DNA of 43,040 nt from NCBI GenBank assembly GCA_030524475.1, contig JAUNGO010000014.1, positions 1 to 43,040 on the forward strand. Reading direction: 5' to 3'. Below the pieces are notes generated by a model that was not told the origin of the DNA, ran no database searches, and was given only the letters and a program-made list of their open reading frames with translations. The position numbers and the translations under genes are program-made. This DNA comes from Eggerthellaceae bacterium (lineage in GTDB: Bacteria; Actinomycetota; Coriobacteriia; Coriobacteriales; Eggerthellaceae). This document shows, piece after piece, positions 8,833 to 36,391 of the stretch (position 1 is its first letter; every line of letters begins with the position of its first letter).

Positions 8833-8834
8833 AG

Positions 8835-11609: not shown

Positions 11610-11694
11610 GCGTCGGCGGCGCGGGGAGCGAATGCGTTTTTGCCGTGCCGCGTGGCGGGATGGCGAAGCCGTGCCAGAAAGGGGCTTGGGGCTC

Positions 11695-14305: not shown

Positions 14306-14322
14306 CCAATAGGAGGAAATGA

Positions 14323-15636: not shown

Positions 15637-15646
15637 CGCGAGAATC

Positions 15647-16017: not shown

Positions 16018-16020
16018 GAC

Positions 16021-20046: not shown

Positions 20047-21512
20047 GCGAGAGCGCCCTTAGGTCGCAGACTATCTCGTCTTTTGTTTGGAAGTTTCTCG
20101 AGCGCGGAGGCAGCCAGGTTGTCCAGCTCGTTGTTCAGATCATATTGGCACGTATCCTTGCTCCTGAGGATTTCGGGGCGCTCGCCATCATGTTGGTCTT
20201 CGTCAATATCGGCAACGCTATCGTGCAGTCAGGTCTTAACACGGCCATAGTCCAGTCTCCTGATGCTGATGAGAATGATTGCTCGACGGTTTTCTGGATG
20301 AGCTTTGTGGTCTCCGTCGTTCTGTATTGCGTCATTTTCTTCCTTGCTCCGACTGTGGCGGCATTCTATTCCATGTCGGCGATTGTGTGGCCGCTACGCA
20401 TCCTCTGTCTGATTCTGCCTTTCGGTGCGCTCAATTCCGTGCAGGTTGCTATCGTTCAGCGACGGCTGCAGTTCCAGAAGGTGTTCGTTGCCACAATGGT
20501 CGCCGTCATCGTCTCGGCGCTCTTCGGTATCGGCCTTGCTTTTATTGGGGCCGGCATCTGGGCATTGGTGGCTCAGCAACTCGTTTATCAGATCGTGAAT
20601 AGTCTTGTGATGGCGGTTCAGGTGAGATGGCGCCCGCGTCTTGTGTTCGTTGCGGGGCGGGCTAGCAGGCTGTTCTCCTTCGGCTGGAAGCTGCTTGCGT
20701 CCGGACTTCTCGAACAGGTCTATCAATCTCTTTCGGATTTGATTATCGGGAAGCAGTTCAACGCTTCGAACCTCGGTTTGGTATCGCAGGGCAAGAAGTA
20801 CCCGCAAGCGCTCGGCAGTATGCTCGACGGGGCCATCCAGCCGGTGATGCTGTCGGCGGTGTCGCGCGTGCAATCCGACGTTGCCTACGTGAAACGCCTG
20901 GTGCGCCGCGCGCTCAAGACCTCGACGTTTCTCATCGTGCCTTCCATGACGCTGTTCGCCGTGGCGGCCGAGCCCATTGTTGGGCTGCTGCTGGGGGAGA
21001 AATGGCTTCCTTGCGTGCCGTTTCTACAGATGTACTGTTTCATCTACGCGCTGCTGCCCATACACACAACGAACCTACAGACGCTCAACGGGATGGGGCG
21101 CAGTGACCTGTTCCTGAAGCTCGAACTGGTCAAGAAGGCCTATGGCATTTGCCTTATTCTGCTCGCCGCGTTCGCGCTCAGGGACGTTTACTTGATGGTC
21201 GCCATGTACATGGTGACCGGCGTTATCTCCACCTTTGTGAACGCTTGGCCCAACAAACGGGTCATCGGCTACTCGTACGGTGAGCAGCTGCGTGATATCG
21301 CGCCCGCCTTCGCTCTCTCCGCCGTGGCCGGCGGGTTGGCGCTCTTGTGTGGCTTCCTCGTCGACAACGGCATGCTGCAAATTCTGGTTGAGGTTGCCGT
21401 GATGGCTGCCGTCTACCTAGGGCTGGCAAGGCTGCTTCATGTGGAGTCGCTTGAGTATCTGCTGGTGACGTTCAGGGAAATGTTGGGCTATCACAGGGGG
21501 AGCAAGGCATAG
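20043..21512 (+). CDS. Wzx-like oligosaccharide flippase (MOP superfamily)
   Basis: 489 residues with about 12 to 14 membrane segments. The start (SSFVWKFLERGGSQVVQLVV, ILARILAPEDFGALAIM) is typical of the WzxC/TuaB/polysaccharide transport branch of the MOP/MATE superfamily. It would flip the undecaprenyl-linked repeat unit to the outer face for the Wzy-like polymerase two genes upstream. ATG 20043 overlaps the preceding stop (ATGA), so the gene is translationally coupled. Composition rises towards normal GC in its second half. Confidence 0.9.
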   Translation: MSESALRSQTISSFVWKFLERGGSQVVQLVVQIILARILAPEDFGALAIMLVFVNIGNAIVQSGLNTAIVQSPDADENDCSTVFWMSFVVSVVLYCVIFFLAPTVAAFYSMSAIVWPLRILCLILPFGALNSVQVAIVQRRLQFQKVFVATMVAVIVSALFGIGLAFIGAGIWALVAQQLVYQIVNSLVMAVQVRWRPRLVFVAGRASRLFSFGWKLLASGLLEQVYQSLSDLIIGKQFNASNLGLVSQGKKYPQALGSMLDGAIQPVMLSAVSRVQSDVAYVKRLVRRALKTSTFLIVPSMTLFAVAAEPIVGLLLGEKWLPCVPFLQMYCFIYALLPIHTTNLQTLNGMGRSDLFLKLELVKKAYGICLILLAAFALRDVYLMVAMYMVTGVISTFVNAWPNKRVIGYSYGEQLRDIAPAFALSAVAGGLALLCGFLVDNGMLQILVEVAVMAAVYLGLARLLHVESLEYLLVTFREMLGYHRGSKA

Positions 21513-21574
21513 GGATTTCGCTTTGAACTTTTCGCACTTTGGCAACTGAAGACTTTGATAAAAGGGGAAGCAAC

Positions 21575-22711
21575 ATGTCCGACCGCATACTCGTGACTCG
21601 CTCCTCCATGCCTGCGCTGGAGGAGTACGTCGAAGAGATAGCGCCTTTATGGGAGAGCCACTGGCTCACCAATATGGGTGTGGAACACAAGAAGCTGGAG
21701 ATGGCTCTGAAGGAGAGACTCGGTGTGGGCAACCTCGCGCTGTTCACCAACGGACACAACGCGTTGGAGTGCATCTTGGAGGCGATGGCGCTTCCTATGG
21801 GCGGCGAGGTCATTACCACGCCATTCACCTTTGCCTCCACCACCCACGCCATTGCGCGCAAGGGGCTGACGCCCGTGTTTGCCGATGTGACGCCCGGTAA
21901 CCTCACGCTCGACCCAGAGTCGGTCGAGCGCATGGTAACTCCGCGTACCTGCGCCATCGTGCCCGTGCACGTATACGGCAACCTGTGCGACGTCGACGCC
22001 ATCCAGCAGATCGCCGACCGTCACGGTCTGAAGGTCATCTACGACGCAGCCCACGCGTTCGGCGTTGAGCGCCGTATGCCCGATGGCTCGTGGCGTTCCG
22101 CTGCCTCATTCGGCGACGCCTCGATGTTCAGTTTCCACGCCACCAAAGTATTCAACACAATCGAGGGCGGCTGCGTGTGTTTCAAGGACGAGACCTTGTA
22201 CCCGCTTCTCAACCAGTGGAAGAACTTCGGCATAACGGGTCCGGAGGATGTTGAGTACGTCGGCGGCAACGCCAAGATGAACGAGTTCTGCGCCGCTATG
22301 GGCGTGTGCAACCTGCGTCACCTCGACGAGGAGATTAAAAAGCGCTGCGCCGTGGCGAAGCGCTACTGGGAATGGCTCGAGGGCGTGCCAGGCGTGACGG
22401 TGTTCCGCCCAGGTGAGGATGTTAGGTGCAACTACGCCTACCTGCCAGTGCTGTTTGACCCTGAGGTGTTTGGGGCGACCCGCGACGATGTGTTCGCGGC
22501 GCTCGACGCCGTTGGTGTGGGGGCGCGCAAGTACTTCTATCCGCTGGTGAGCGACTACGCGTGCTACCGCAGCGTGTACTCTAGCGACCGCACGCCCGTG
22601 GCGAAGAAGGCGGCCTCGCAGGTTCTCACTCTTCCCGTGTACGCCGACCTTGCGCTGGTCGACGTCGATCGCATTTGCGACGCTGTGCTTTCGACAGGTA
22701 AAATAGATTAG
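21575..22711 (+). CDS. DegT/DnrJ/EryC1/StrS-family sugar aminotransferase
   Basis: 378 residues, PLP-dependent. The PLP lysine is Lys191 in FSFHATKVFNTIEGG; supporting motifs are LALFTNGHNALECIL, EVITTPFTFASTTHAI, VIYDAAHAFGVE and VEYVGGNAKMNEF. The family transfers an amino group (usually from glutamate) to a keto-sugar nucleotide. ATG 21575 is used since AAAGGGGAAG precedes it; the 36-nt upstream extension lacks one. The product could be the amino sugar moved by the WecF-like transferase. Its substrate pathway is uncertain because the rml genes nearby are remnants. Confidence 0.9.
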   Translation: MSDRILVTRSSMPALEEYVEEIAPLWESHWLTNMGVEHKKLEMALKERLGVGNLALFTNGHNALECILEAMALPMGGEVITTPFTFASTTHAIARKGLTPVFADVTPGNLTLDPESVERMVTPRTCAIVPVHVYGNLCDVDAIQQIADRHGLKVIYDAAHAFGVERRMPDGSWRSAASFGDASMFSFHATKVFNTIEGGCVCFKDETLYPLLNQWKNFGITGPEDVEYVGGNAKMNEFCAAMGVCNLRHLDEEIKKRCAVAKRYWEWLEGVPGVTVFRPGEDVRCNYAYLPVLFDPEVFGATRDDVFAALDAVGVGARKYFYPLVSDYACYRSVYSSDRTPVAKKAASQVLTLPVYADLALVDVDRICDAVLSTGKID

Positions 22712-22720
22712 GAGATTCGT

Positions 22721-23698
22721 ATGAGCAACGTGCTCGTCACATCGATCGGTTCTGTTGCAGCCGATATAACCATCAAATCACTTAAGCGCTTAGGTCATAG
22801 GGTCGTGGGCGCTGATATCTATCCGCGTGAGTGGGTGGTGGACGCGTACAACGTCGATGCCTTCTATAAAGTGCCGCTGGTGAGCGACGCCGAAACCTAC
22901 CTGTCTGCCGTTCACAGTGTTTGCGAACAAGAGTCGATTGACTATTTCATACCGCTGATCGATCCCGAGGTCGACCTACTCAATGCGAGTCGAGGGTGGT
23001 TTGAGGAACACGGGGTGACTCTGTGCATATCCACTAAGCGCTCGCTAGACATTATCCGCAACAAGAAGAGTCTGCAGGACTTCATTGAGGACGAGGTGCC
23101 CGAGATAAACGGAATACCAACGTTGATGGTTGGCGGTGCGGAGAAGCTGCCCTGGGGCTATCCTGTGGTGGTGAAGCCCTACGACGGTCGCTCGAGCCAA
23201 GGTAGGGAATACATTAGCTCTGACGAGGAGTGGGAGACCTACAAGGAGAAGCGCGCCGACTCCAAGAGCATCGTGGAGCCCTTCGTGAGCGGCCCGCTCG
23301 TCATGGTTGAGGTTGTGCGCCAGGGGTCAACAGGCAAGTGCGTTTGCATCACGCGTCAAGAGCTTTTGAGCACGCCTCACGGCTGCGCGACGACGGTGCG
23401 AGTCTACTCAGATCCCGATCTGGAGGCTGCCAGCAAGGTTCTCGCCGAAAAGCTTAACGTGAACGGCTGTGTAAACTTCGAGTTCATCAAGCACGAAGAC
23501 GGCAGGCACTTTCTAGTGGAATGCAATCCGCGTTATTCGGCGGGGCTCGAATTTTCGTGTCTAGCCGGCTACGACTGTGTGGCCAACCACCTCGACTGTT
23601 TTGGCGATCATCCGATTGACGAATTCGAGATGGGCGCTCCAACAATTGTCGCTCGCAAGTACGAGGAGTACGTAACCTCGGTGGAGAGGGGTTCGTAG
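22721..23698 (+). CDS. ATP-grasp ligase of the carbamoyl-phosphate synthase-like type
   Basis: 325 residues. An N-terminal pre-ATP-grasp Rossmann part (NVLVTSIGSVAADITIKSLK) is followed by the ATP-grasp core: YPVVVKPYDGRSSQGREYI, SIVEPFVSGPLVMVEVV and the Mg-binding strand FEFIKHEDGRHFLVECNPR. Enzymes like this make an acyl phosphate and couple it to an amine. In polysaccharide loci, beside DegT aminotransferases, they are thought to attach amino acids or other acids to amino sugars. It follows the aminotransferase by 9 nt and overlaps the permease gene by 1 nt, so the three form one unit. Confidence 0.85.
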   Translation: MSNVLVTSIGSVAADITIKSLKRLGHRVVGADIYPREWVVDAYNVDAFYKVPLVSDAETYLSAVHSVCEQESIDYFIPLIDPEVDLLNASRGWFEEHGVTLCISTKRSLDIIRNKKSLQDFIEDEVPEINGIPTLMVGGAEKLPWGYPVVVKPYDGRSSQGREYISSDEEWETYKEKRADSKSIVEPFVSGPLVMVEVVRQGSTGKCVCITRQELLSTPHGCATTVRVYSDPDLEAASKVLAEKLNVNGCVNFEFIKHEDGRHFLVECNPRYSAGLEFSCLAGYDCVANHLDCFGDHPIDEFEMGAPTIVARKYEEYVTSVERGS

Positions 23699-25053
23699 TG
23701 GAATTGCATGCGGTTAATCTGCTCTACGATTTCGCCATTGCGGCGGCATTACTGTTCGTCGCTAAGATCCTGAGATGCAAGCTTAAGTTTATCCAGCGCG
23801 CCTACATTCCAGCTGCTTTGTTGGCTGGGTTTCTCGGCCTTTTCCTTGGGCCGCAATTTCTCGATGTGCTGCCCTTTAGCCAGGAGATCGGCAACTACCC
23901 GTCGATACTGATCTCGGTACTGTTTGGCTCCATGTTCGTGGGAACCAAAGACAGGGTGTCGGTCAAGTCCGTCCTCAACGGAGCGGGAGACACCCTACTC
24001 GTGAACGGCGCCTCTGAGATGATGCAGTTCGCCTTGTTCACCCTGATTGGGGTGACCGTGCTGCCGATGGTGTTCGGAGGCATTAACGAGGCGTTCGGCC
24101 TCATGTTGCCCGCTGGTTTTGTGGGAGGTCACGGCACGGCTGCGGCTATTGGCGGCGTGCTCGCCGAGTCCGGCTGGGCGGACGCCTCGACTATAGGTCA
24201 GACGTTCGCGACCGTCGGTTTGCTCGGGGGCATATTACTCGGTGTTGCGCTCATCAACCTCGGCGCTCGTAGGGGTTGGACCAAGGTCATTAAGGGCGTC
24301 GACGAGCTTCCCGAAGAGATGCTGACAGGGCTTGTCCCCGGCGACAAGGCGGCCTCGCTTGGCAAAAGCACTACGAACGGTGTTAGCATCGACTCGCTCA
24401 CGTGGCACGCGTGCCTAGTTTTGGTCTCGGTGGGCATGGCGTACCTTGTTAACGAGGGGCTTAAGGTTATCCTGCCGAGCGTGTCGTTCCCGACCTACGG
24501 TTTGGCTCTCCTTTGCGGCATCGTCGTGCAGTTTGCGTTGAAGGCGACTAAGCTCGACGCCAACGTCGACAGGGACGTGATCACCCACATCGGCAGCTCA
24601 GCGACGGATTTTCTGGTGGTGTTCGGTATCGCGTCGATCAAGGTGAGCGTTGTCGTGCGGTACTGGGTTCCGATTATCGTCCTCGCTGCGCTGGGTTTCC
24701 TGTTCGTGATCGCCTGGTTGCTGCTCGTCTCTCGCCGCTTCTTCCGTAGGTACTGGTTCGAGCACGGCATCTACATCTTCGGTATGTCCACGGGCGTGCT
24801 GGCGACAGGCGTTATCTTGCTGCGCATTACCGACCCGGAGTTCCGCACGGGCGTGTTGGAGGACTTCGGCTTGGCGTGGATTGTGCTGTCGGTGATGGAC
24901 GCTCTGTTGGTAGCTTTTGCACCGGTGTTTGTCGTGGCCGGGCAGGGCGTTGCTTTTGCCCTGGCGCTCGTTGCAGCGTCCGTGGTGGCTCTCGCTCTTT
25001 GCAGGTTTGTGTTCGGGCGCAAGAAGCACGAGCAAGAAGGGGAGCAACTATGA
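23698..25053 (+). CDS. GltS-type sodium/glutamate symporter family permease
   Basis: 451 residues, two halves of about five hydrophobic segments each, joined by a charged linker near residues 200-225. PAGFVGGHGTAAAIGG is the pore-loop signature of the ESS (GltS) family, normally importing glutamate with sodium; IGSSATDFLVVFGIASI is the matching re-entrant loop of the second half. The GTG start overlaps the ATP-grasp stop by 1 nt. A glutamate permease is unusual in a polysaccharide operon. Import of glutamate for the aminotransferase or the ligase is an inference. Confidence 0.88.
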   Translation: MELHAVNLLYDFAIAAALLFVAKILRCKLKFIQRAYIPAALLAGFLGLFLGPQFLDVLPFSQEIGNYPSILISVLFGSMFVGTKDRVSVKSVLNGAGDTLLVNGASEMMQFALFTLIGVTVLPMVFGGINEAFGLMLPAGFVGGHGTAAAIGGVLAESGWADASTIGQTFATVGLLGGILLGVALINLGARRGWTKVIKGVDELPEEMLTGLVPGDKAASLGKSTTNGVSIDSLTWHACLVLVSVGMAYLVNEGLKVILPSVSFPTYGLALLCGIVVQFALKATKLDANVDRDVITHIGSSATDFLVVFGIASIKVSVVVRYWVPIIVLAALGFLFVIAWLLLVSRRFFRRYWFEHGIYIFGMSTGVLATGVILLRITDPEFRTGVLEDFGLAWIVLSVMDALLVAFAPVFVVAGQGVAFALALVAASVVALALCRFVFGRKKHEQEGEQL

Positions 25054-25214
25054 AAGGCATAGTTCTCGCGGGCGGGTCCGGGATCCGGCTGCATCCCATA
25101 ACGAAATCGGTATATCTTTACACCGTCCTACCGAACTCTGTGGCTTTCCTTGTCGGTGCCTCTTCTCGGGCGTCTCAGTTTCTCCTGTCGGTTTGGTGCA
25201 TAGTTCCGAATTAG
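25050..25214 (+). pseudogene. rmlA: rmlA stub (first about 22 codons of glucose-1-P thymidylyltransferase)
   Basis: MKGIVLAGGSGIRLHPITKS is the unmistakable start of RmlA, including the nucleotide-binding GGSGxRL loop (the usual Thr is Ile here). It starts in an ATGA overlap with the permease gene, so it was once the next gene of the operon. After about 22 residues the sequence no longer resembles RmlA and the frame ends at 25214. The break marks the edge of the intact polysaccharide operon and of the adjoining accessory block. Confidence 0.75.
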
Positions 25215-25343
25215 TCGGCGCTGATCCTCGGTTCTGGAACTCTCGTCATGTTGTCGTCCCAAGGGCGCTTCCTTGTAAAGCGTTTTACTTTGGAAGCGAT
25301 GCTTGGGAACGCGGGTAACCCTTGAACCAATTTCGAAAGACTT
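25215..25343. other. Junction sequence without a gene
   Basis: A 129-nt non-coding scar between the rmlA stub and the end of the minus-strand gene block. No inverted repeats, tRNA or integrase site were seen. Confidence 0.35.
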
Positions 25344-25544
25344 CTAGTCCTTATACCGCGAATACCTCCCTAGCGTCTCTCTGAAGGCAATCAATATCCG
25401 CTCGTCTTCCTTGTCGATGGTCATAATTGTGGTGAAGGGGTCGACGACGCCGTTCTCGGCAAAGGGGGCAGGGGAGCTCCAAGCAACCGCAAGAACGCCT
25501 ACTTCGGCTTCACGGACGAGCCTGCGCGCGAACTGCGCTCTTTC
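25344..25544 (-). pseudogene. Out-of-frame C-terminal continuation of the small minus-strand gene
   Basis: A coding-like frame without its own start, reading ERAQFARRLVREAEVGVLAV, then AWSSPAPFAENGVVDPF, ending GRYSRYKD at a TAG (25344-25346). It lies in the -1 frame relative to the gene at 25499-25984 and joins it smoothly at about 25540 (ALEKE-RAQFARRL). It most likely encodes the original C-terminus of that protein, cut off by a one-base change. Confidence 0.5.
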
Positions 25545-25984
25545 TCAAGAGCGCGCTGGTGCAATTCGCTCAGGTGCTCCAAAAAGCTGCTCCAGTCGGT
25601 GTATTCCGCGCACTGACGTTGTTCGCTCTCGAGAAGCGCATCTCGATCGTGCTCATCGAGATCATTCGGATCCTTACCGCGATTTTCGCAGTATACCCCG
25701 TAGAAACCCTCTCCGGGCCTCCCGGTCGCCTTCGTAACCACCAGGGCGGGCAAACACGGAGCGCTATCATCCGGCTCACCGAAGTGCCTGCACTCATCCT
25801 GAATGCGACCAAGCGAGCACCTGAACCCGAGCGGGTGGATCGGGTCCTCTCCGAAAATGGAGGCCATCTTTTGCGCCAGAACGCCGTAGGTGATCGGCTC
25901 GTATGGGTGCTCGCCGAGCCAGCAAACTATCGTTGTTGCGGTGCGGTAGTCGAGCCAGCGTTTGCTAGATGTGATATGTTCCAT
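25499..25984 (-). CDS. Small protein with restriction-associated PGxGF motif, probably frameshifted
   Basis: 161 residues. The ATG at 25984 has a strong AAAGGAG ribosome binding site. The segment LPALVVTKATGRPGEGFYG resembles the lPsLVVnKkTGkPGeGF motif I associate with the N-terminal parts of HNH-type restriction-related proteins; no HNH is present. The preceding YGVLAQKMASIFGEDP segment may be a small helical domain. The last 11 residues (from SSRAGSSVKPK) are poor in character, while the -1 frame continues plausibly for 66 codons, so the gene may be frameshifted. It lies about 50 nt behind the HsdM/S-like gene, in the same direction. Confidence 0.6.
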   Translation of the reverse strand: MEHITSSKRWLDYRTATTIVCWLGEHPYEPITYGVLAQKMASIFGEDPIHPLGFRCSLGRIQDECRHFGEPDDSAPCLPALVVTKATGRPGEGFYGVYCENRGKDPNDLDEHDRDALLESEQRQCAEYTDWSSFLEHLSELHQRALEKERSSRAGSSVKPK

Positions 25985-26034
25985 TTTGTGATCTCCTTTG
26001 GGTTGGATGTAGCTACGTCTACAGTAAAGGTTGC

Positions 26035-27237
26035 TCACTCGCTCAGGGCACGCTCGATGCTGTCGACGTTGCGTTGCGCCTTCTCCAGCTCAACAAGAGC
26101 TTCGCGGTACTCTCGGCCTACCTTGGACTGTATCTCGCTCCAGTTGTCGGGCAGGAACAGGTCGTGTATCGCTTGAACGCTGACGTGTTTTGTCCCGCCC
26201 CCGCTTCGCGCGACGGCAAGGCCGCTGGGCCCGTTGAGGAAGGCTGCGACGAAGTGCGGATCGACGCCCTCTGCGGGAGAGACGACAATGAGCGTTTCGT
26301 GCGGGTAGAGCTGGGTAACGCTGCCTCGGAACACCTGCGCGCGAGCTTGAGCGCCCGCTCGTGCCACGATTATGTCTCCCGGCTTGAGCGGTTGGGCCGA
26401 GGTTGTCCTCGCGGCAACCTGAGTGCTCGGGTCCATCGGGATGCCTACGCCCTTGCGCCAGCGTCCTCCGTTGAAGTCGCCGGGGCCGACAAGGTACGCC
26501 TCGGCGTCGGGCTTTTGTGCGTTTCTCATCCCGCATCGACGCGGGTTCAGCCCCATGCGGGCGCGGGCGACGTTGAAGAGCCGGGTTCTGCTTCTATGGC
26601 TGGCGAGATGCGGCGCGTCAGCTTGCAGCATAAGGAAATCCCAGTCGATTCGCACCTTTCCTTCGAGTAGCGACCCAGTTGGACGCGAGAAATGTTCAGA
26701 CGTCTTCGCGAGGTCGGGGCTTCCGAAAATCGTCGCGCGGCAGAATTCCACCTCATCATTGCTCCTCGACAAGAGGAGGACCGCGCCCTGTCTGCCCGAT
26801 CCTTCGAAGCATGAGGCGGGCAGACTCACGACGCGCTCAAGGCATCCGCTCTCGAGAAGCGCCGCGCGTCCTTCGCCGAGCTCGGCAGATGATAGCGCGC
26901 CTCCGGGGAAGACGATTGCAACCCGCCCACCCGCAAGGCAGTGTTCGCGGATCTCCCTTGCCACGGCAAGAGGCAAGGGGTCGTCGTCGCATTGCGCGGC
27001 GCCGCTCTGAAACCCCTTGAGAAACAGAAGGGTTGCGCGGTCGACGCGCGTGCCGTGTCGCGCGAACACGGCGCTGTAAACGGTATCTTGCACAGGCTGA
27101 AGACGGACGTCGCGAATGGAAAGCTCTCGCTCTGCCGGTTCGGCCATGCCCAGTTCCTCGCAAGCCAGAGCCAAAAAGCCGCGTTTCAGGCGCAGCGGCT
27201 CACCCTCCCAGTAAACATCGGATTTGCGCGCACCCAT
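26035..27237 (-). CDS. HsdM/HsdS-like DNA-recognition protein without SAM-binding motif
   Basis: 400 residues. Residues 85-160 resemble the segment after the catalytic motif of type I N6-adenine methylases (GGRVAIVFPGGALSS, LERVVSLPASCFEGSG, AVLLLSRSNDEV). Residues 245-365 resemble an HsdS-type target recognition domain (LKPGDIIVARAGAQARAQVF, YPHETLIVVSP, VDPHFVAAFLNGPSG, GTKHVSVQAIHDLFLP), followed by a helical C-terminus (370-398). Upstream of residue 85 there is neither the SAM-binding FxGxG motif nor NPPY, so methylation is not expected. The ATG at 27237 has GGGAGG before it. It is divergent from the AAA+ gene with a 98-nt shared promoter region. Confidence 0.7.
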   Translation of the reverse strand: MGARKSDVYWEGEPLRLKRGFLALACEELGMAEPAERELSIRDVRLQPVQDTVYSAVFARHGTRVDRATLLFLKGFQSGAAQCDDDPLPLAVAREIREHCLAGGRVAIVFPGGALSSAELGEGRAALLESGCLERVVSLPASCFEGSGRQGAVLLLSRSNDEVEFCRATIFGSPDLAKTSEHFSRPTGSLLEGKVRIDWDFLMLQADAPHLASHRSRTRLFNVARARMGLNPRRCGMRNAQKPDAEAYLVGPGDFNGGRWRKGVGIPMDPSTQVAARTTSAQPLKPGDIIVARAGAQARAQVFRGSVTQLYPHETLIVVSPAEGVDPHFVAAFLNGPSGLAVARSGGGTKHVSVQAIHDLFLPDNWSEIQSKVGREYREALVELEKAQRNVDSIERALSE

Positions 27238-27253
27238 TGTTCCTCCCAAAAAA

Positions 27254-27319
27254 GTTGCCCGCACCCCTTGCATTGAATCGCAGTAAGAGCGTTACTGTAA
27301 TTATAGCAAGTCGGGCAAC
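27254..27319. promoter_or_regulatory. Nested dyad symmetry in the divergent promoter region
   Basis: Three inverted repeats share nearly the same centre: GTTGCCCG/CGGGCAAC (27254-27261, 27312-27319), CTTGC/GCAAG (27267-27271, 27306-27310) and CAGTAA/TTACTG (27281-27286, 27292-27297). TAATTATAG (27298-27306) may be a -10 towards the AAA+ gene. The layout fits a shared operator that controls both the HsdM/S-like and the AAA+/helicase genes. Confidence 0.55.
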
Positions 27320-27335
27320 CGAAAGAAGGGATCAG

Positions 27336-28988
27336 ATGGATCTGAAGCCGAGCGAGGTTTTGAGCAATCTCAAACATGAGATTGTCGGCCAAGACGAGGG
27401 GTGCCGTGCCATCGTCAGGGCGCTGTTGCTCTCCCTCAGCGTGGCGAACGCAAGAATCGACGGAGGGGTCGCTGGGTCTCCGCCCATCATCGCCACGCTT
27501 GTCATCGGGTCAACGGCGTCGGGCAAGACCTTCATCGTAAGGAAGGCGGTGCACGCCCTGGGCATTCAGGCGGTTTATATCGACTGCTCGGCTCTCACGG
27601 GGGCGGGATGGAGCGGAAGAAGTCTGTCCGACGCGCTTCATCCAGTGGCTCAGCTCCAACAGGAGAATCCCGACCAACCCGTCGCCGTTGTATTCGATGA
27701 GTTCGACAAGATTGTCCGCGGCACAGGGGATGGCGCGAATCGGGGATTCGAGATTGGCCCTGAGCTGCTCGCGCTGTTCAACGGAGGGACGATTACCTTG
27801 GAAACGGAGCGACACAACGGGTTCGATCTCGATACCGACAGGCTTGTGATCGTCTTTCTGGGAGCGTTCACGGGGATTGAGGACTACGTAAAGGACAGGC
27901 GCTGCTCGGCAAGGAGGGAGGTTGCATTGGGCTTTGCCTCGCCGTCTGCCGCAAAGGATGACGGGGGCGCCACGTACTTCGACGTAAAGCCGGAGGACCT
28001 CGAAGCGTGGGGCATCATGCGCGAGCTTGTCGGTCGCATTTGGCCGGCGATTGCGCTTCCGCCGCTTCCTCTGCAAGACCTCGTTGCTATTGCCCGCGAT
28101 TGTGCGGCGTCATCCTATGCTCGAGCGCTGCCTGGCGGAGCTTCGCTTACGGTGTCTGAGAGTGCGGCGCTTGAGATTGGCCGCGAAGCGATGGAAAGTG
28201 GCCTTGGGGCGCGGGCGGTGAACAACCGGGTACGTGAGCTTGCCGCACAGGCGAACGCCGACATGCTTGAGGACGACACAATCGTCTCTGCCACGATTGC
28301 CTGTTCAGATGGTAAGTTGCAGCTCGAGTACGTCCACGGTACCCGACAAACGGCCGCGCCGGCAATTGACTCGGGGCTTGCGGCTAGGCAAAAGCGCCTC
28401 AATGCACTCGTCTCCAGCCTCATGGCCCCCGATTCGAGGGGCGACGACGGCAATTCCAGCGAAAACGCTTCTGATATGCCTGGCCTCATGGATTGCCTTG
28501 TTCCGCCGGAGCGGTTTGTCGCCTTGGCAAATCTTAAGCATGTGGATGCCCTGTGCGACGCGCTCCTGCGCTACGGCCTGTCGGACGAAGACGCCCATCG
28601 CCTCCTCAAAGCCTTGGTTCTGTATGTCGGTGAGTGGTACAGGGCGCAGCCCGACTGTCGCCGCATGGGGGAAGTGCTCAAGCTGGTTGCCCTTGCGCGG
28701 AGGGGGGATCCCGAATGCGCTCTTTCTCCGCTTGATGTGATGATCGAGGGATGCCACAAGGGCGATGAGGCGTTTTATGGTTTTGCCGACTGGCTTGCGG
28801 AGCCTTCGCGCACGCGTGATGAAGTCTCAACTGGGGCGGTCTGTCTGAGCGAGTACCGTCGCTTTGCGCGTCTCGACGCAATGGGGCAGAATGCCGTAGC
28901 ACTCAATGTGGCGAGATCCGCTGCTCGGGCGATTCTGGAAGAGGAGAATAGGGGAGGCTTGCTCGCTGGTGTCGACAAGGGGTGCTAG
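27336..28988 (+). CDS. ClpX-like AAA+ ATPase with unknown C-terminal domain
   Basis: 550 residues. It opens with VLSNLKHEIVGQDEGCRAIV, the ClpX/HslU-type leader helix. Walker A is GSTASGKT (58-65), Walker B VVFDEFDK (118-125), sensor 1 in VIVFLGAF, and the sensor 2 Arg in GLGARAVNNRVREL (about 290). There is no zinc-binding domain and no IGF loop for ClpP, so it is not the housekeeping ClpX. The last 200 residues or so are helical and not recognised. The ATG at 27336 follows GAAGGG. It is the first gene of the strand that carries the helicase-nuclease and PIWI-like genes and might remodel or load those proteins. The role is inferred. Confidence 0.8.
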   Translation: MDLKPSEVLSNLKHEIVGQDEGCRAIVRALLLSLSVANARIDGGVAGSPPIIATLVIGSTASGKTFIVRKAVHALGIQAVYIDCSALTGAGWSGRSLSDALHPVAQLQQENPDQPVAVVFDEFDKIVRGTGDGANRGFEIGPELLALFNGGTITLETERHNGFDLDTDRLVIVFLGAFTGIEDYVKDRRCSARREVALGFASPSAAKDDGGATYFDVKPEDLEAWGIMRELVGRIWPAIALPPLPLQDLVAIARDCAASSYARALPGGASLTVSESAALEIGREAMESGLGARAVNNRVRELAAQANADMLEDDTIVSATIACSDGKLQLEYVHGTRQTAAPAIDSGLAARQKRLNALVSSLMAPDSRGDDGNSSENASDMPGLMDCLVPPERFVALANLKHVDALCDALLRYGLSDEDAHRLLKALVLYVGEWYRAQPDCRRMGEVLKLVALARRGDPECALSPLDVMIEGCHKGDEAFYGFADWLAEPSRTRDEVSTGAVCLSEYRRFARLDAMGQNAVALNVARSAARAILEEENRGGLLAGVDKGC

Positions 28989-29166
28989 CGTATGGAGCGG
29001 GCGTAGAGTGCTTCCGCCAAAGAACGCCATGCTATAGCCATGCAAATTGAAAGAGCGCTAGTTTATCAGCAGTCAAAACATGCGTTAGTGTCCCAAAATT
29101 ATCCCACCTACGTCTTAGATATCTGGTAGAAACTATCGCATCTGCAAACGACGGATTGGTGCAAAG
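28989..29166 (+). other. Spacer before the helicase-nuclease gene
   Basis: 178 nt without a gene, AT-richer than the flanks. It includes the 8-nt palindrome AGATATCT (near 29118) and may hold a separate promoter for the helicase operon. The ribosome binding site before the ATG at 29167 is weak. Confidence 0.35.
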
Positions 29167-32100
29167 ATGAAAAAAGACGATGCCGCGGATGCTGCCCGCC
29201 TCTCCGACGCAGTGCTCGAGGTGCTCCACGACGAGACTGCGGAAAACAGAGACGGCCTTCTGCTCATAGACATGCCCACGGGGTACGGGAAGTCCTATGC
29301 GGCGCAGCAGTTCCTCCCTCGGTTTGTGCTCGACGAGGCAAATCGAGGAAGAAACATCTTTTACATCACAAACCAGAAGAAAAACCTCCCGAAGCGCGAG
29401 GACATGATAAGGGCGTTCGCCGCGTGCGGCGTCGCCGATTCCGCGCGGATGGTCGACGAGCAAACCATGTGGGTGCAGTCCGTTGTCGACATGATGGAGG
29501 AGAACGCGACCGAGGAGCTCGACAGAGAAATCCCACTCGAGTTTAAAGGGGACAAATGGAAAAGTCTTCTGCAAGCTGCCGTCAACTACCGCGAGATGAA
29601 GGGGAATCCGTCTGTGCCCAACGGATACAGGACGATAGCCGAGGAGAGCCTCAGGATTGCGGAGAGGGCGTTTCGGGCCTACGTGTCCAAATTACTTTCA
29701 GAGCCGGATAGCCCCGAGGGCGAGAAAAAGGGAAAGAAGGCAAAACCGCTTACCTTGAAGAAGAGGATACGTAGGGTTGAGCTGGATCCTCGATGGCAGT
29801 GGCTTGGGAGGCTCTACCCTACGGTCTTCACGAGGCGGCGGCGGATTTTCCTGATGAGCGTGAACAAGTTCCTCGTGTCCAACATATCGGTGGTCGAGGG
29901 TGGCTATCGGTTTATCGACGACGACAAGCTGATGAAAGACGCTGTTGTGATCATCGACGAGTTTGACGGCAGCAAAGCGGTTCTCCAGCAGGACATCATC
30001 AAGAACTCAGTACGCGGGAAGGCCGAGCCGATCGCGCTGCTCAAGCAGATACACAAGGCGTTCGAGGACGACGGCTTCCCATCCGAGATGACTCGCGTGC
30101 CTAAGGATCGCAACCTGCCAAGCGACCGCATAAAGAGCACCCTGGAGCGAATGAAGGACGTCGTGTCTGGGACGTATGACGACTGCAGGCTTCGATACAA
30201 CTTTAAAAGCGACGACGAGCCCGGATGGCAGGATTTCATTTTTCACGACCACGAGTACCGCTGTGCGAGCGACAAGCGCTACTACGTCACGTTCGATCCC
30301 GCGGAAAGGCACAATCGCCTCGTGTCGAGCAAAAAAGAGGCTGACGGCGAGCCTCTAACTCATATTCTCGGCCGGGTAAGAGGCGCCCTGCAGTACTCCC
30401 AGAACGGGATAAGCCTCATAGCCGAGAACTACCAGAAACTCGAGAACGCCAGGAGAGGGCCCGACGAGGCAGAGTTCTCCTACGAAAACGCTCTCTACTC
30501 GATACTCGACCAGTTCGGAATCGTCGGCGACAGCGCCAAGGAGTTCATGGCGAGCGGCGCTTCGTCGCCTTTCAGGCGAGGGGGAAAGAAGAAGCTTGAG
30601 ACGGCCGATTTGAGGGGAGACTACTCGGTGTACGAGCGCGGCATTCACTTCGTCCATCTCGAGAACAGCGAGGAGCACAAGGAGCGCACGCGGGTCAGCA
30701 TGTATGCCATGCAGGACACCCCCGAGAAGACGATTCTCAGGCTTTGCGAGAAGAACTTCATCGTAGGTCTGTCCGCCACGGGAACCATTGACTCGGTGCT
30801 TTGCAACTACGACCTGCGCTATTTCAAGGATTCTCTCGGCGAACGATTCAGGACGTTGTCGGCTCGGCGCATGGAGACGATGAGGAAGGCATTCGAGGGA
30901 CAAAACGCCGGCTACGAGAATGTGAGTATCGAGACAACGCTAATAGACGACGCGGATGACGGGTGGCGCGGGGCATTCGGCGACGCGGAACTTGCCGTTA
31001 GGATGCGTCGGCTTGCGGCCAGCAGGAAAGGCGGCGGCAAAGACGACGACTACGGTGTGAGCCGCTATTTGCGCCTGTGCATAGCTTTCAGGTCGTTTCT
31101 CGAGCACGACGACATAAAATCTATGCTCTGTCTGACTATGGCGGCACCTAGGCCGGGCGGCGCCATAGACTCCGAGACTCTGACTGCGCTCTTCGACGCC
31201 CTTGTGTCGGCCTGTAACGCTTCGTTGCCCCAGCAGGAGGGAAAGGCTTACGCCTTCATATCGGGATCGAGGAACTTCGATGCTGAGTACGCTGGGCTCA
31301 AGTCCCGCCTCGAGGCGGGAGAAAAGCTGTTCATCGTGGCCGCCTACGACACGGTGGGAACTGGCGTGAACCTGCAGTACAGGATTCCGAAGGGAGTGGA
31401 GACCTGCAAGATATACGAGTTCGACAACGGCTGTAACGAGAAGGACTTTGACGCAATCTACCTCGACCGCCCGACGAACACCGCGCCATGGCTCAGTCCC
31501 GCCCAGAACAACGAGGCGGGCCTTCTGGACAACCTCTATCGCATGTGCGAGCTGCGCGAGCGAGCCGAGGTAGACGAGAGCGAGTACGTGCAGGCCTACA
31601 CGGCGCTTCTGAGCTACTTTGCCACGCAGAAGCAGAAGAAGGGCCGTTTCATGCCAAAGGGCCTCAAGGAACGCCCGTCGGCGAAGGCGTTCGCAACAAA
31701 GACGGTCAACCAGGCGGTCGGCAGGATATGCAGGACGCCGAACAAGAACAAGACCGTCTACCTGTTCGCGGATGCGGGGTTAGCCGATACGATGGATCTC
31801 GACTTTGGTGCCGACGGCCTTATCAACAACGAGTACGCCGCACTCGTCGGCGCGCTGAAGGAACGTCGGGTTGAGGGATCGAAGCCTTTCAAGTATAGGC
31901 TCGAATCACGTGCGGCCCTGCAGTCCGACAAGCTCAACCAGCAGATCTTGAGCACGGTGAGGTATAAATCCTGGAATGCCGAGAAAGTGCAGTGGTGGCG
32001 CAGGCTGAGGGACGCCTCATTGCGCCACCCCACGCTTGCCGACCCGGATGCGGACAGGTTTGCGAAGAGGGTGTATGCCGAAGCGGGCATGCCGATTGCG

Positions 32101-32724
32101 GGCTACTCTTACGATGAGGTGGGAGATTACGGATCGATCCAAGGAATCTCCTTCGAGAGCGTCGACGCGTTGTCGAAGGCCGTCAGCGAGGAGGCGGCGG
32201 CCCTGCCGACCATCTTGGAGATACCGGGCGTCCGCGGGTTGTTCGAGGGGATGGGGTGGGCGACCGGCTTTGCCCCTGCACGCCACATCATGACCCCCGT
32301 GATTTTCAACAACATATACAAAGGCGCGCTTGGGGAGGCCGTCGGAAAGTTCATTCTGGAGCAGAGGCTCCCGGAAATCGCGCTCTCCGAAATAGACGAT
32401 GCGGGCAAGTTCGAGCGATTCGACTATGTGGTCAAGGGAACCGATGTCTATGTCGACTTTAAGCACTGGCAGGGGTTCTGCGGTGATAGCGAGACTGCCG
32501 AGTTCGAAAGGGTAAGGGAGAAGATGCACGAGGTGGGCGCGAAGCAAGCCTTGGTCGTCAACCTGCTGGGTTGTGCCGAAGACGGTTACGAGTACGCGTT
32601 GTCGAGCGATCACGCCATCATGACGGTTCCCTACCTCTACGACGTGTCGGCCCGAGAACTGAGCGACGAGAACCTCACCCGTATCTGCATGTTTCTGAAA
32701 ATGGGAGGCTTGAATGAGGATTAG
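29167..32724 (+). CDS. SF2 helicase with C-terminal PD-(D/E)XK nuclease, DdmD-like
   Basis: 1185 residues. Helicase motifs: I LIDMPTGYGKSYAAQQ (about 34-49), II VVIIDEFDG (about 259-267), III VGLSATGTID (about 532-541), V AAYDTVGTGVNLQYRIP (about 724-740), VI NQAVGRICRTPNKNKT (about 847-862). The C-terminal domain holds a PD-(D/E)XK core: GALGEAVGKFILEQ (about 1051-1064), then FDYVV and VYVDFKHWQ with Asp1097 and Lys1099. Length, order and the fusion match DdmD, which with DdmE eliminates plasmids in Vibrio cholerae by guide-directed unwinding and DNA degradation. It overlaps the next gene by 11 nt. All motor and nuclease residues look intact. Confidence 0.85.
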   Translation: MKKDDAADAARLSDAVLEVLHDETAENRDGLLLIDMPTGYGKSYAAQQFLPRFVLDEANRGRNIFYITNQKKNLPKREDMIRAFAACGVADSARMVDEQTMWVQSVVDMMEENATEELDREIPLEFKGDKWKSLLQAAVNYREMKGNPSVPNGYRTIAEESLRIAERAFRAYVSKLLSEPDSPEGEKKGKKAKPLTLKKRIRRVELDPRWQWLGRLYPTVFTRRRRIFLMSVNKFLVSNISVVEGGYRFIDDDKLMKDAVVIIDEFDGSKAVLQQDIIKNSVRGKAEPIALLKQIHKAFEDDGFPSEMTRVPKDRNLPSDRIKSTLERMKDVVSGTYDDCRLRYNFKSDDEPGWQDFIFHDHEYRCASDKRYYVTFDPAERHNRLVSSKKEADGEPLTHILGRVRGALQYSQNGISLIAENYQKLENARRGPDEAEFSYENALYSILDQFGIVGDSAKEFMASGASSPFRRGGKKKLETADLRGDYSVYERGIHFVHLENSEEHKERTRVSMYAMQDTPEKTILRLCEKNFIVGLSATGTIDSVLCNYDLRYFKDSLGERFRTLSARRMETMRKAFEGQNAGYENVSIETTLIDDADDGWRGAFGDAELAVRMRRLAASRKGGGKDDDYGVSRYLRLCIAFRSFLEHDDIKSMLCLTMAAPRPGGAIDSETLTALFDALVSACNASLPQQEGKAYAFISGSRNFDAEYAGLKSRLEAGEKLFIVAAYDTVGTGVNLQYRIPKGVETCKIYEFDNGCNEKDFDAIYLDRPTNTAPWLSPAQNNEAGLLDNLYRMCELRERAEVDESEYVQAYTALLSYFATQKQKKGRFMPKGLKERPSAKAFATKTVNQAVGRICRTPNKNKTVYLFADAGLADTMDLDFGADGLINNEYAALVGALKERRVEGSKPFKYRLESRAALQSDKLNQQILSTVRYKSWNAEKVQWWRRLRDASLRHPTLADPDADRFAKRVYAEAGMPIAGYSYDEVGDYGSIQGISFESVDALSKAVSEEAAALPTILEIPGVRGLFEGMGWATGFAPARHIMTPVIFNNIYKGALGEAVGKFILEQRLPEIALSEIDDAGKFERFDYVVKGTDVYVDFKHWQGFCGDSETAEFERVREKMHEVGAKQALVVNLLGCAEDGYEYALSSDHAIMTVPYLYDVSARELSDENLTRICMFLKMGGLNED

Positions 32725-34540
32725 TAGGATTTCTCCGGCTTTTGACTATGCGAGGCTTTCCGAGTTGGTGCAGGTGTGGAGGCTCGCGACAAGCGACGAT
32801 CGCGTCAGGCGGGGTGCCCGCGCCCTCGACGTTCAATGCGACGAAGGCGAAGTCCTGAGCGTGTTTTTCTCCTCGGGTCGGGAGATTTTTCTGATGGTTG
32901 ACGCGCATGTCGATGGCCTCGCCTTGTCAAAACGCATCGTGCAGGCTTCGCCCGACGATCATCTGAGCGCGGCAAGGGTGGGGCTGGATTCGCTCAATCC
33001 CTGCACCCTCTTGCAGCTGCTGATCAACTCCCTTGCTGCTCCGAAGGGCTGCGGCTTGAGCTTCAACAACGTCTCAGGCCACCTTTTTGTGGTACCCGCC
33101 GGCGGAATCAAGAGGCGCGCCGGTCTTGTAGAGCAGGTTCATGCTCTCGAGGTCAGGGTTGCCCAGGACGGTGCCCTCGGCCTTCATGTTCGTACCTTCT
33201 CGTCGCTGAGGTTGAAGAGGTACATGCGCAAGAGTCGAATTGACCCAGAGCGGATGCCCAGATACGCCATCACCCCGATGGGTGACCTGCGAAGGTCTTT
33301 TGACGGCGGCGAGGACGAACTGGTAATGAGGCAGCTGGGCGGGAAGAAACATCGCATGCCCTTCTTGGACGCCTCGACGCTGGAAGGATACGAGACGTGC
33401 AAGCTCGGGATTCTCGACGAGACGCTGAGACTGCTTGAGTTGAGATACGGGGGTTGCTGTTCCGTCGAGTTCGAGGAATTCGACGACTCGGCGCGGGTCT
33501 CGGATACGCGCTACGTGAGCGCCAGGTGGCGGGAAGAAATCAGGGCGATGTTCGGCGACGAGCGGATTGTCGTTTCGAACGAGACCGGGAGCGACGAGTA
33601 TGGCGACGTCTGCGAGGAGCTTGCCGAGGCGTTGGCCGACCTCACTGGCCTAGAAGCGCTTGTGGGCGAAGCTGCTGACGACGAAGGCAAGATGCTCGTG
33701 CGGGTGATACACGAAAAAGGGTACTTTGCCGACGGTGGGGAGGACAGCTACACCGAGCAGCATCCGCATTCGGTCGTGCAGCACGTGACGGTGGAAACCC
33801 TGTGCGCTCAATTCAGTATCCCTTCCGCTGTGGTCGACTCGCTCGCAAAGGAGCTCGCCATAAAGAGGGACGTCGTCTCCGGCTCGATCCGCGTGTTCGA
33901 TTGGAAAGGCTCGGGACTCGGGGGTCTTTGGACCTTCGGCTTGGTAATTGACGACGACGGTGATAACGGCGATAACGGCGGTGACCGATACGCCTTTGTG
34001 AAGGTCGGGAGCGAGGGCGAGCTCGATTTCGCGTTCGAGGGGTGGGACCCGACGGGGGAGTCTGCTTATTCCGACCTCATAGACGACCTCTCGCTCGAAA
34101 GAGGGGCCTGCGCGATTGTCAGGTCGCCAGAAGGAGACGTCGACGTCATCTTCGACACCGTGCTGTTCGCGGTTCCCGACTTCGCGGAGATAAGAAAATG
34201 CCTCGTCGGTGAGCAGGGGCGCATATCGAGGAGCCGAGAGGCGATTGACGGATACCTCAGGGAGTCGACGGACGTGTCGTACGCACCTATAGACGAGCGC
34301 TCGGGGTATTACTATGCAGGTGTTGTGGGAGGAGGCATGCAGACAAAGGTCCCGACCGCGGCCGTCATCAGGAGGACAGAGACGTTGCGCGGCTCCGGCC
34401 CGGTGCTCCCGAGGATACTTCCTCTCATGGACGTCGACTTTGTGAAGACCAAAGCCTTGACGGTTGTGCCCTTTCCGCTGAAGCACCTTCGCGAATGGCT
34501 CGCGATGAACGGCCTGGCTTTCGTTTGCGCGGAGAAATGA
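32714..34540 (+). CDS. Putative DdmE-like (short prokaryotic Argonaute-like) protein
   Basis: 608 residues, soluble, no recognised N-terminal domain. Two parts recall MID/PIWI proteins: LVRVIHEKGYFADGGEDSY then VVQHVTVETLCA (about 329-360), and the end, GYYYAGVVGGGMQTKVPT, LPRILPLMDVDFVKTKALTV then PFPLKHLREWL (about 534-597), like the C-terminus of PIWI domains. No DEDX catalytic set is apparent, as in the guide-only Ago DdmE. It overlaps the helicase-nuclease gene by 11 nt, which ties the two together. A short DNG repeat (9-nt units near 33958-33984) sits in an acidic loop. Assignment rests on partner, size and these weak motifs. Confidence 0.55.
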   Translation: MRISRISPAFDYARLSELVQVWRLATSDDRVRRGARALDVQCDEGEVLSVFFSSGREIFLMVDAHVDGLALSKRIVQASPDDHLSAARVGLDSLNPCTLLQLLINSLAAPKGCGLSFNNVSGHLFVVPAGGIKRRAGLVEQVHALEVRVAQDGALGLHVRTFSSLRLKRYMRKSRIDPERMPRYAITPMGDLRRSFDGGEDELVMRQLGGKKHRMPFLDASTLEGYETCKLGILDETLRLLELRYGGCCSVEFEEFDDSARVSDTRYVSARWREEIRAMFGDERIVVSNETGSDEYGDVCEELAEALADLTGLEALVGEAADDEGKMLVRVIHEKGYFADGGEDSYTEQHPHSVVQHVTVETLCAQFSIPSAVVDSLAKELAIKRDVVSGSIRVFDWKGSGLGGLWTFGLVIDDDGDNGDNGGDRYAFVKVGSEGELDFAFEGWDPTGESAYSDLIDDLSLERGACAIVRSPEGDVDVIFDTVLFAVPDFAEIRKCLVGEQGRISRSREAIDGYLRESTDVSYAPIDERSGYYYAGVVGGGMQTKVPTAAVIRRTETLRGSGPVLPRILPLMDVDFVKTKALTVVPFPLKHLREWLAMNGLAFVCAEK

Positions 34541-34555
34541 CAGGGGTGACTCTGC

Positions 34556-35008
34556 CTATAAAATCGACCCTACGCGCAGCTTGAACACGGCTTTCTTTTC
34601 GGGGGCGGGGGTGTTGAGGGCGAGGGTGGGCATGTGCGCGTCTTGCGGGCCGAGCACCAGAAAGCGCCCCGGGGTAAGCTCGAAGCGCTCGCCGCGCGTC
34701 TCGCCCGATTGAAGGGCGTAGTCGTCCTGCTTGTTGTAGGGCTGCGTCTCCACGGTGTCAGCCAGAGGCGCAACCTCGCACGCCTCGCCTTCGCCCGCAA
34801 GCACAACCTGCACGTCGTGGTAGTCGCGATGCGACTCGTACTGCGCGCCCTCGCGCGTGCGCGTGGTGCACTCGATTACGTTTACGTAGTCGCCGTCGCC
34901 AAGCTCGTGACGGCCGGCCTCAAGCGTCGCCGCGTCGTTTTCCTGCAGAAACCGATACGCCTGAGGCGCGATGGCCGCCAGATCGGCAAGGTTGTTTCCG
35001 TAAATCAT
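34556..35008 (-). CDS. YhcH/YjgK/YiaL family protein
   Basis: 150 residues, cupin-type double-stranded beta-helix. MIYGNNL at the start, SHRDYHDVQVVLAGEG in the centre and FLVLGPQDAHMPTLALN (about 115-131), with His, Asp/Glu and His at metal positions, define the family, whose members occur with sialic acid, ulosonate or beta-galactoside genes. The exact reaction is not established. It has a strong ribosome binding site (AGGAGG) and follows the glutamate-cysteine ligase gene by 30 nt. Its 3' end faces that of the DdmE-like gene 15 nt away, at the island's right edge. Confidence 0.9.
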   Translation of the reverse strand: MIYGNNLADLAAIAPQAYRFLQENDAATLEAGRHELGDGDYVNVIECTTRTREGAQYESHRDYHDVQVVLAGEGEACEVAPLADTVETQPYNKQDDYALQSGETRGERFELTPGRFLVLGPQDAHMPTLALNTPAPEKKAVFKLRVGSIL

Positions 35009-35038
35009 TCTGATGCCCCTCCTCGTTTTTGCGAATTG

Positions 35039-36391
35039 CTACTGCTCTCCATGTTTCGGCGTCGATGTGGCGTGCCCGCCGCTTTCCACCCTCCGCGCCA
35101 GCGTGGTGCGTGCTTGCGCCAGTTTCTCCAGCGGCGCCAGCCACTTGCGGTCGTTTTCGCACAGCCCTGCGCGCGCGATGCCCATCACATCGTCCATCAC
35201 TTCGCCGACGGGGCTGCCATACGCCTCGCCCTCGTAGCCGCGCGCCATGAGCGACTCCTTCGCCGCCGCCACGTCGGCCTCGCTTGCGCCGGCGAACAGC
35301 GCGTCGAGTGCGTCCAAACTGCCCTCGCCGTAGAACAGGCCCTTGATCAGCGCAGCGTAGGCGATCACGTAGGGCACGGGCATGGCGTCGGCGGGGCGAA
35401 TCTCGATGTAGGTTTTCAGGCGCACGTCGGTGAAGAACATCGACAGCGCGTGCTCCACGTCGGCGCGCTGCATGGGTTGCTCGGCGTAAATCTCGCCGAA
35501 CGTGCGCGCGTCTTCGCGCCAGCCTTCCTCCGCCTGTGCGTCGGGCGCCAGAATAGCGGGCGCGTCGAGCACGTATTCCGCGTAGTCGCGCAGCGTGAAG
35601 CCCGGTTGCATGGCGCCCGGTACCACGCCGCAGCGGTCGGGGTCGCAATACTTCCAAATCGCGGTGCGCACCAGCTCGTGCGTGCGCGGCGCGCCCTCGA
35701 ACGCGGGCGCGTTGTCGCACAGAAGTGCCAGCAGCGGAACGAGCGCGAATGCCAGCCGCAGCTTGCGCAGGCAGTCTTCAACCGACGTGTAGTCGATCGA
35801 CACCTGCGTCGAGGCGCTCCCGCGCATCATGCACACCCCGAACGGCGAGATGCCGCCCAGGTAGCGGTTCATCAACTCGTAGCGCCGCTTGGGGATAAGC
35901 TCCAGATCGGCGGCGCGCGAGGTGGGGTGGTAGCCCAGCGTGAGCACGCGCACGTCGGTGGGGGAAAGCGCGCGGTCGAGTTGCGCCTCGAAGTCCTCGA
36001 AGCAGCGCGCGGCGTCGGTTAGCTCTACGAACGGGCCGGCGGAAAGCTCCACCTGCGCGGCGGGCTCGATGGTGACGGCCTGCGCGAACGCGACGCTCGG
36101 CGCTTCCGCCCCCGGCGTTCCCGGCGCCCCCGCGCCGCCGCGCATCGCCACGCCCAACAGGTCGCCTTCCGCGTCGCGCGTCTCTTCCGCATACCCCGCG
36201 TCGCGCAACCGCTCGAGCAGCCAAGCGGTGCCGTGCGGCTCGCTATACGACACAGCGCGCCCGTCGGCGTGCAGAAGCGTGTGCTCAAGCTCGATTCCCA
36301 GCCGCTTGGCGTGCGTCTCGATGCCGCTTTCGAAGAACGAGACGATGGCGTCAATGTTCTTTTCGCGTGCCGGCTGGTTGTTTTTCGGCAT
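35039..36391 (-). CDS. gshA: Glutamate-cysteine ligase (GCS2 family)
   Basis: 450 residues, joining L-glutamate and L-cysteine with ATP to gamma-glutamylcysteine. GCS2-family motifs: KRLGIELEHTLLHADG (ATP/Mg-binding Glu pair), EPAAQVELSAGPF, LGYHPTSRAADLELIPKRRY, MRGSASTQVSIDYTS (substrate loop) and FFTDVRLKTYIEIRPADAMP. AGGAGAC before ATG 36391 sets the start. A low-complexity Gly/Ala/Pro loop (residues about 88-100) is an unusual insertion. No glutathione synthetase gene is near, so the end product could be gamma-glutamylcysteine or a precursor of ergothioneine (EgtA-like activity). Confidence 0.9.
   Translation of the reverse strand: MPKNNQPAREKNIDAIVSFFESGIETHAKRLGIELEHTLLHADGRAVSYSEPHGTAWLLERLRDAGYAEETRDAEGDLLGVAMRGGAGAPGTPGAEAPSVAFAQAVTIEPAAQVELSAGPFVELTDAARCFEDFEAQLDRALSPTDVRVLTLGYHPTSRAADLELIPKRRYELMNRYLGGISPFGVCMMRGSASTQVSIDYTSVEDCLRKLRLAFALVPLLALLCDNAPAFEGAPRTHELVRTAIWKYCDPDRCGVVPGAMQPGFTLRDYAEYVLDAPAILAPDAQAEEGWREDARTFGEIYAEQPMQRADVEHALSMFFTDVRLKTYIEIRPADAMPVPYVIAYAALIKGLFYGEGSLDALDALFAGASEADVAAAKESLMARGYEGEAYGSPVGEVMDDVMGIARAGLCENDRKWLAPLEKLAQARTTLARRVESGGHATSTPKHGEQ

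What the first reader, a model, noticed from the sequence alone, without database searches (positions are those of the whole stretch)
29167..34540. DdmDE-like plasmid-elimination pair in a GC-rich gut-type actinobacterium
A 1185-residue SF2 helicase with an intact C-terminal PD-(D/E)XK nuclease overlaps a 608-residue gene whose middle and C-terminus recall MID/PIWI proteins. In Vibrio cholerae, DdmD (helicase-nuclease of almost the same length) and DdmE (catalytically dead Argonaute-like, guide-bearing) destroy plasmids. Seen: the motifs, the overlap and the sizes. Inferred: that the 608-residue protein is a DdmE relative.
Basis: partly seen in the sequence, partly recalled or inferred. Interest (0 to 1): 0.9.

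Follow-up and report, generated by a model that had tools for sequence, protein, structure and literature searches.

The report
DdmDE plasmid-elimination pair, compact DdmE
This actinobacterial genome carries, on an acquired gene island, a distant relative of the cholera bacterium's DdmDE system, in which a DNA-guided protein brings a DNA-cutting motor onto plasmids; the guide protein is a shortened form that turns up repeatedly across bacteria.

Summary
The observation and the interpretation both hold. ORF 29167-32724 (1185 aa) is DdmD: PADLOC DdmD E 3.5e-35, solved L. casei DdmD 6e-58, a predicted fold matching DdmD end to end, helicase and PD-(D/E)XK motifs intact. ORF 32714-34540 (608 aa) is DdmE: single-sequence evidence is weak (1e-7), but a family profile finds solved DdmE at 1e-61 and 9e-42, and the AlphaFold model (pLDDT 81) matches DdmE at Z 25.5 against about 10 for other Argonautes. 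The two genes sit together in all 25 related loci checked, from Bacillota to cyanobacteria and an archaeon; no third gene is conserved. The pair lies on a 24.7-kb lower-GC island absent from two same-genus genomes, and is rare: 5 of 398 class genomes. What is new is modest. The window's DdmE lacks a 64-92-residue PIWI segment present in both characterised DdmE proteins; this compact form recurs in lineages that do not form one clade on the DdmD tree (p-AU 0.0004). Plasmid elimination itself is inferred from homology, not shown.

The parts
29167..32724 (+). ddmD: SF2 (DinG/XPD-like) helicase with C-terminal PD-(D/E)XK nuclease, 1185 aa
   Evidence: PADLOC DdmD 3.5e-35; PDB L. casei DdmD 6e-58 and V. 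cholerae DdmD 2.6e-37; AlphaFold model pLDDT 81.5 matches DdmD at 2e-53; motifs
32714..34540 (+). ddmE: Argonaute-like guide protein, 608 aa, compact form
   Evidence: PADLOC DdmE 2.5e-7; PDB DdmE 9e-8; family profile 1e-61 to LcDdmE; fold Z 25.5 to DdmE
32714..32724 (+). 11-nt overlap of ddmD stop and ddmE start, GGAGG ribosome-binding sequence just upstream
   Evidence: overlapping or abutting genes in most related loci
33680..33874 (+). MID part of ddmE (about residues 323-387) with the family-invariant D344, Q356, T359, K384
   Evidence: 21 of 21 homologues; secondary structure; the role as guide 5'-end pocket is inferred
34196..34240 (+). place in ddmE (about residues 495-509) where 64-92 residues of a PIWI segment present in V. 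cholerae, L. casei and most other DdmE proteins are missing
10365..35093 (.). 24.7-kb island that carries ddmDE; absent from two same-genus genomes, where the flanks (to 10364 and from 35094) are joined by about 90 bp
26035..27273 (-). island neighbour: N6-adenine methyltransferase-like protein with a type I specificity-subunit-like C-terminus; not part of the pair
   Evidence: not conserved next to ddmDE elsewhere
27270..28988 (+). island neighbour: ClpX-like AAA ATPase (start uncertain); not part of the pair
   Evidence: not conserved next to ddmDE elsewhere

Best explanation
The two overlapping genes are a DdmDE plasmid-elimination operon. DdmE, a catalytically dead Argonaute, carries a short single-stranded DNA guide in its MID pocket and pairs with the complementary strand of an invading plasmid. 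It then recruits DdmD from an autoinhibited dimer onto the displaced strand. DdmD runs along that strand with its helicase and cuts it with its C-terminal PD-(D/E)XK nuclease, so the plasmid is lost. Shown here: the identity of both proteins, intact helicase and nuclease motifs, an Argonaute fold with invariant MID residues and no conserved RNase H acids, coupled genes, and a location on an acquired island. Inferred by homology with V. cholerae and L. casei: guide chemistry, recruitment, plasmid specificity and outcome. The DdmE here is compact: it does without a PIWI segment that the characterised proteins have.
For: Sequence. Fold: DdmE; DdmD. Motifs and conservation. Strict pairing of the two genes in 25 loci of many phyla with no third conserved gene. 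Further divergent pairs in the same family and order. Mechanism of the characterised systems: PMC12409362.
Against: Identity to the characterised proteins is only about 15-22%. The DdmE is 80-110 residues shorter than the solved ones and lacks a PIWI segment whose role is unknown to me. No assay, guide or target has been seen. The genome is an incomplete assembly (85% complete).
Confidence: 0.82

Rival explanations
1. Same architecture, different target: a guided DdmDE-type system that mainly attacks phage DNA or conjugative elements rather than small plasmids.
For: The pair is highly diverged from V. cholerae DdmDE and sits on an island with a methyltransferase-like gene. Relatives are themselves carried by plasmids, so the target range probably varies.
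Against: Published DdmDE targets plasmids, primarily small ones (PMC12409362). No direct evidence for another target was found here.
Confidence: 0.1
2. The DdmE is a decaying, non-functional remnant: the missing PIWI segment is a deletion that has inactivated it.
For: The segment is present in both characterised DdmE proteins and in most relatives.
Against: The reading frame is intact and the fold confident (pLDDT 81). The invariant MID residues are kept. The same compact form is intact in six other loci or groups next to intact ddmD genes.
Confidence: 0.05
3. A restriction helicase-nuclease next to an unrelated protein; the DdmE likeness is superficial.
For: Pfam finds only a sub-threshold ResIII match in the helicase and nothing in the 608-aa protein.
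Against: all single out DdmD and DdmE; the gene pairing is strict.
Confidence: 0.01

Closest known systems
Lactobacillus casei DdmDE (PDB 9ix4, 9iw3, 9ixm)
   Same: Helicase-nuclease of 1192 aa matched over residues 25-1163; DdmE fold over the whole length, Z 25.5; shared C-terminal P-x-P-x-K-x-LRE motif
   Different: DdmE there has 715 aa and the PIWI segment; about 20% identity; host is in Bacillota
Vibrio cholerae DdmDE (PDB 8u0u, 8u3k, 9ezy, 9bgk)
   Same: Two genes, helicase plus PD-(D/E)XK nuclease, dead Argonaute partner; DdmD 2.6e-37, DdmE 9e-8
   Different: DdmE 687 aa with the PIWI segment; on a pathogenicity island with other defence systems; under 20% identity
Pair in genome G101 (same family) and pairs in G587, G666, G689 (same order)
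   Same: Adjacent ddmD and ddmE with the same motifs
   Different: G101 has a long DdmE (732 aa) and a 1325-aa DdmD; the others a 1312-aa DdmD and a compact 631-aa DdmE; 25-26% DdmE identity to the window
Other prokaryotic Argonaute systems with a separate effector (such as SPARTA, SPARDA)
   Same: A catalytically dead guided Argonaute works with a separate effector (known from the literature)
   Different: Their effectors are not a DdmD helicase-nuclease; fold similarity of this DdmE to other Argonautes is much lower (Z about 10)

Membership tests
DdmDE | DdmD: SF2 helicase with intact NTP-binding and helicase motifs | tested here: met
   PADLOC DdmD, PDB DdmD matches, motif residues invariant in 22 homologues; fold match 2e-53
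DdmDE | DdmD: C-terminal PD-(D/E)XK nuclease | tested here: met
   E1057, D1086, D1097-F-K1099 invariant in 25 proteins
DdmDE | DdmE: Argonaute-like protein whose nearest relatives are DdmE | tested here: met
   Profile 1e-61 and 9e-42; Z 25.5 against about 10 for other Argonautes
DdmDE | DdmE: MID guide pocket | tested here: inconclusive
   Q356 and K384 invariant in 21 of 21 and in the MID part of the model; pocket geometry not inspected, guide binding not testable
DdmDE | DdmE: PIWI without an RNase H catalytic tetrad | tested here: met
   No conserved acid at the ends of the first and fourth PIWI strands; only E594 is invariant in 398-608. Residue-level superposition on an active Argonaute was not possible; hhalign with one Argonaute gave nothing
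DdmDE | Two-gene operon, ddmD then ddmE | tested here: met
   11-nt overlap; same order in 25 loci
DdmDE | Guided plasmid elimination in cells | not testable with these tools
   Needs an assay
DdmDE | DdmD held as an autoinhibited dimer, released by DdmE | not testable with these tools
   Known for V. cholerae DdmD (PMC12409362)
Type III restriction helicase | ResIII-type restriction helicase as nearest relative | tested here: not met
   ResIII match below Pfam cut-off; DdmD first by sequence and fold, DinG/XPD next

The most novel reading that the evidence does not exclude
Compact DdmE proteins, which lack the PIWI segment found in both characterised DdmE proteins and have lost (or never gained) it several times, form a functionally distinct type of DdmDE with a different way of recruiting DdmD or of holding the guide-target duplex.
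Probability: 0.2. Interest if true: 0.5.

Novelty: new member of a known kind. Interest (0 to 1): 0.35.

Why it matters
DdmDE has, to my knowledge, been characterised in V. cholerae and L. casei only. This pair extends it to high-GC Actinomycetota, at roughly 20% identity, on an acquired island, and shows that a whole PIWI segment can be dispensed with. A natural minimal DdmE is a good subject for asking which parts hold the guide and which call in DdmD. A DNA-guided plasmid remover in such hosts would also be a barrier to their genetic engineering and to plasmid-borne genes.

Tried and rejected
A single-protein scan of genome contigs and a profile scan of viral contigs found no relatives; phage records have none. 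A conserved third gene beside the pair: none. A correlated indel in DdmD between compact and long DdmE systems: no indel of any size, and only scattered residue preferences that I do not trust with so few independent lineages. hhalign of the DdmE family with one actinobacterial Argonaute: no signal. Direct repeats at the island ends, or a tRNA in the window: none found. One clade of compact DdmE on the DdmE tree: not rejected (p-AU 0.07), but rejected on the DdmD tree; window and G101 are both long branches, so their sister position is unsure. Matches of the DdmD profile in G701, G763, G782 and, in the phylum sample, in genomes other than the window's are short hits at the N-terminal (Walker A) end only and were not counted. 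The primary DdmDE structure papers were not held, so the contacts of the missing segment could not be read up.

Full report
What is there. Two overlapping forward genes fill the stretch: 29167-32724 (1185 aa) and 32714-34540 (608 aa). A GGAGG lies just ahead of the second start codon, inside the end of the first gene, as expected of a translationally coupled operon.

DdmD. hmmscan against PADLOC gives DdmD at 3.5e-35. Against solved structures, phmmer gives L. casei DdmD at 6e-58 over residues 25-1163 and V. cholerae DdmD at 2.6e-37. The AlphaFold model made with 21 homologues (pLDDT 81.5) matches DdmD chains at E about 2e-53 and TM 0.74-0.77 over the whole length; the next family, DinG/XPD helicases, comes at 3e-10. 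Walker A, IDEF, SAT, QAVGRICR and the nuclease motif (E1057, ERFD, DFK) are intact, and their key residues are invariant or nearly so in 22-25 homologues.

DdmE. The single sequence is only weakly recognised: PADLOC 2.5e-7, solved DdmE 9e-8, Pfam nothing. A profile of 21 homologues finds L. casei DdmE at 1.2e-61 and V. cholerae DdmE at 9e-42, and nothing else of note. The model (pLDDT 81.4, pTM 0.80) matches DdmE at 3e-31 and other Argonautes only at 9e-10; by VIA-align Z is 25.5 for DdmE and 10.1 at best for other Argonautes. In the MID part D344, Q356, T359 and K384 are invariant in all 21. In the PIWI part (398-608) the only invariant acidic residue is E594, and the ends of the first and fourth strands, where an active Argonaute has aspartates, carry no conserved acid.

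Relatives. With a three-sequence profile, 22 loci came from public genomes: Bacillota, Mycoplasmatota, Bacteroidota, Fibrobacterota, an alphaproteobacterium, many cyanobacteria and the archaeon Methanoperedens. In the loci checked the ddmE gene directly follows ddmD, mostly with overlapping or abutting ends. Clustering all neighbouring ORFs leaves only these two families conserved. In the window's own group the pair is rare: in the class sample of 398 genomes it occurs in the window, in G101 (same family, 1325 and 732 aa) and in three species of one genus of another family (1312 and 631 aa). A phylum-wide sample of 396 gave only the window.

Compact DdmE. The window's DdmE lacks 64-92 residues, at about residues 495-509, that both characterised DdmE proteins and most relatives have. 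Five other loci of the first set (L013, L014, L021, L023, L024) share the lack, and so does the G587 group. On the DdmE tree built without the segment, one clade of compact proteins is not rejected (p-AU 0.07). On the longer DdmD alignment it is (p-AU 0.0004), with at least three changes. I read this as repeated loss or gain of a dispensable or system-specific module. Long branches are in play, so this is moderate evidence. No matching change in DdmD was seen.

Setting. The contig's two ends are syntenic with two same-genus genomes at 77-87% identity, so the contig is not foreign contamination. In both relatives window position 10364 is followed after about 90 bp by position 35094. The 24.7 kb between has lower GC over most of its length (0.55-0.61 from 14.3 to 34.5 kb) and lower third-position GC (0.59-0.80 in its genes from 14.3 kb on, against 0.84-0.92 in the flanks), and is therefore an island. 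It starts with a NusG-like gene and polysaccharide genes, then a methyltransferase/specificity-like gene, a ClpX-like AAA gene and ddmDE. No direct repeats were found at the ends and no tRNA in the window.

How it works. Following V. cholerae (reviewed in PMC12409362): DdmE with a DNA guide binds plasmid DNA, recruits DdmD from its autoinhibited dimer onto the non-target strand, and DdmD translocates and cuts. All these steps are inferred here. The parts they need are present.

Judgement. The system is known, and its presence in a Gram-positive host was already known from L. casei, so the novelty is that of a divergent new member with a compact DdmE. It does not merit 0.9.

Noticed in passing
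L004:7995-13558 (Nostoc plasmid pn2); L006:4258-10262 (Persicobacter plasmid pPP11): Intact ddmDE-like pairs carried on plasmids, in pPP11 directly behind parA and parB; an anti-plasmid system on plasmids suggests competition between plasmids.
   Followed up: partly
L005:4193-6663 (L. delbrueckii plasmid pLD01): ddmD looks broken into several ORFs at the end of the record; no ddmE seen in the stretch.
   Followed up: no
L064:5530-11347, L065:3911-9728, L066:5517-11334: A third, very divergent ddmDE lineage in the window's order (DdmD 1312 aa, compact DdmE 631 aa), of the same lengths in three species.
   Followed up: partly
window:10365-35093: 24.7-kb island with NusG-like antiterminator, exopolysaccharide genes and ddmDE, absent at the same site in two same-genus genomes.
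   Followed up: partly
window:25499-28988: ClpX-like AAA ATPase (27270-28988, +) without recognised partner, divergent from a methyltransferase/HsdS-like gene (26035-27273, -) followed by a 179-aa gene of no family (25499-26038, -).
   Followed up: no
L009:15233-15862 and 8217-8864: In G101 a 209-aa gene of no Pfam family overlaps the start of ddmD, and a Tpt1/KptA RNA 2'-phosphotransferase gene lies behind ddmE.
   Followed up: no
L027:13646-15223: In Nonlabens tegetincola the ddmE frame starts about 100 bases late (525 aa), although its ddmD is close to Polaribacter's; possible frameshift.
   Followed up: no
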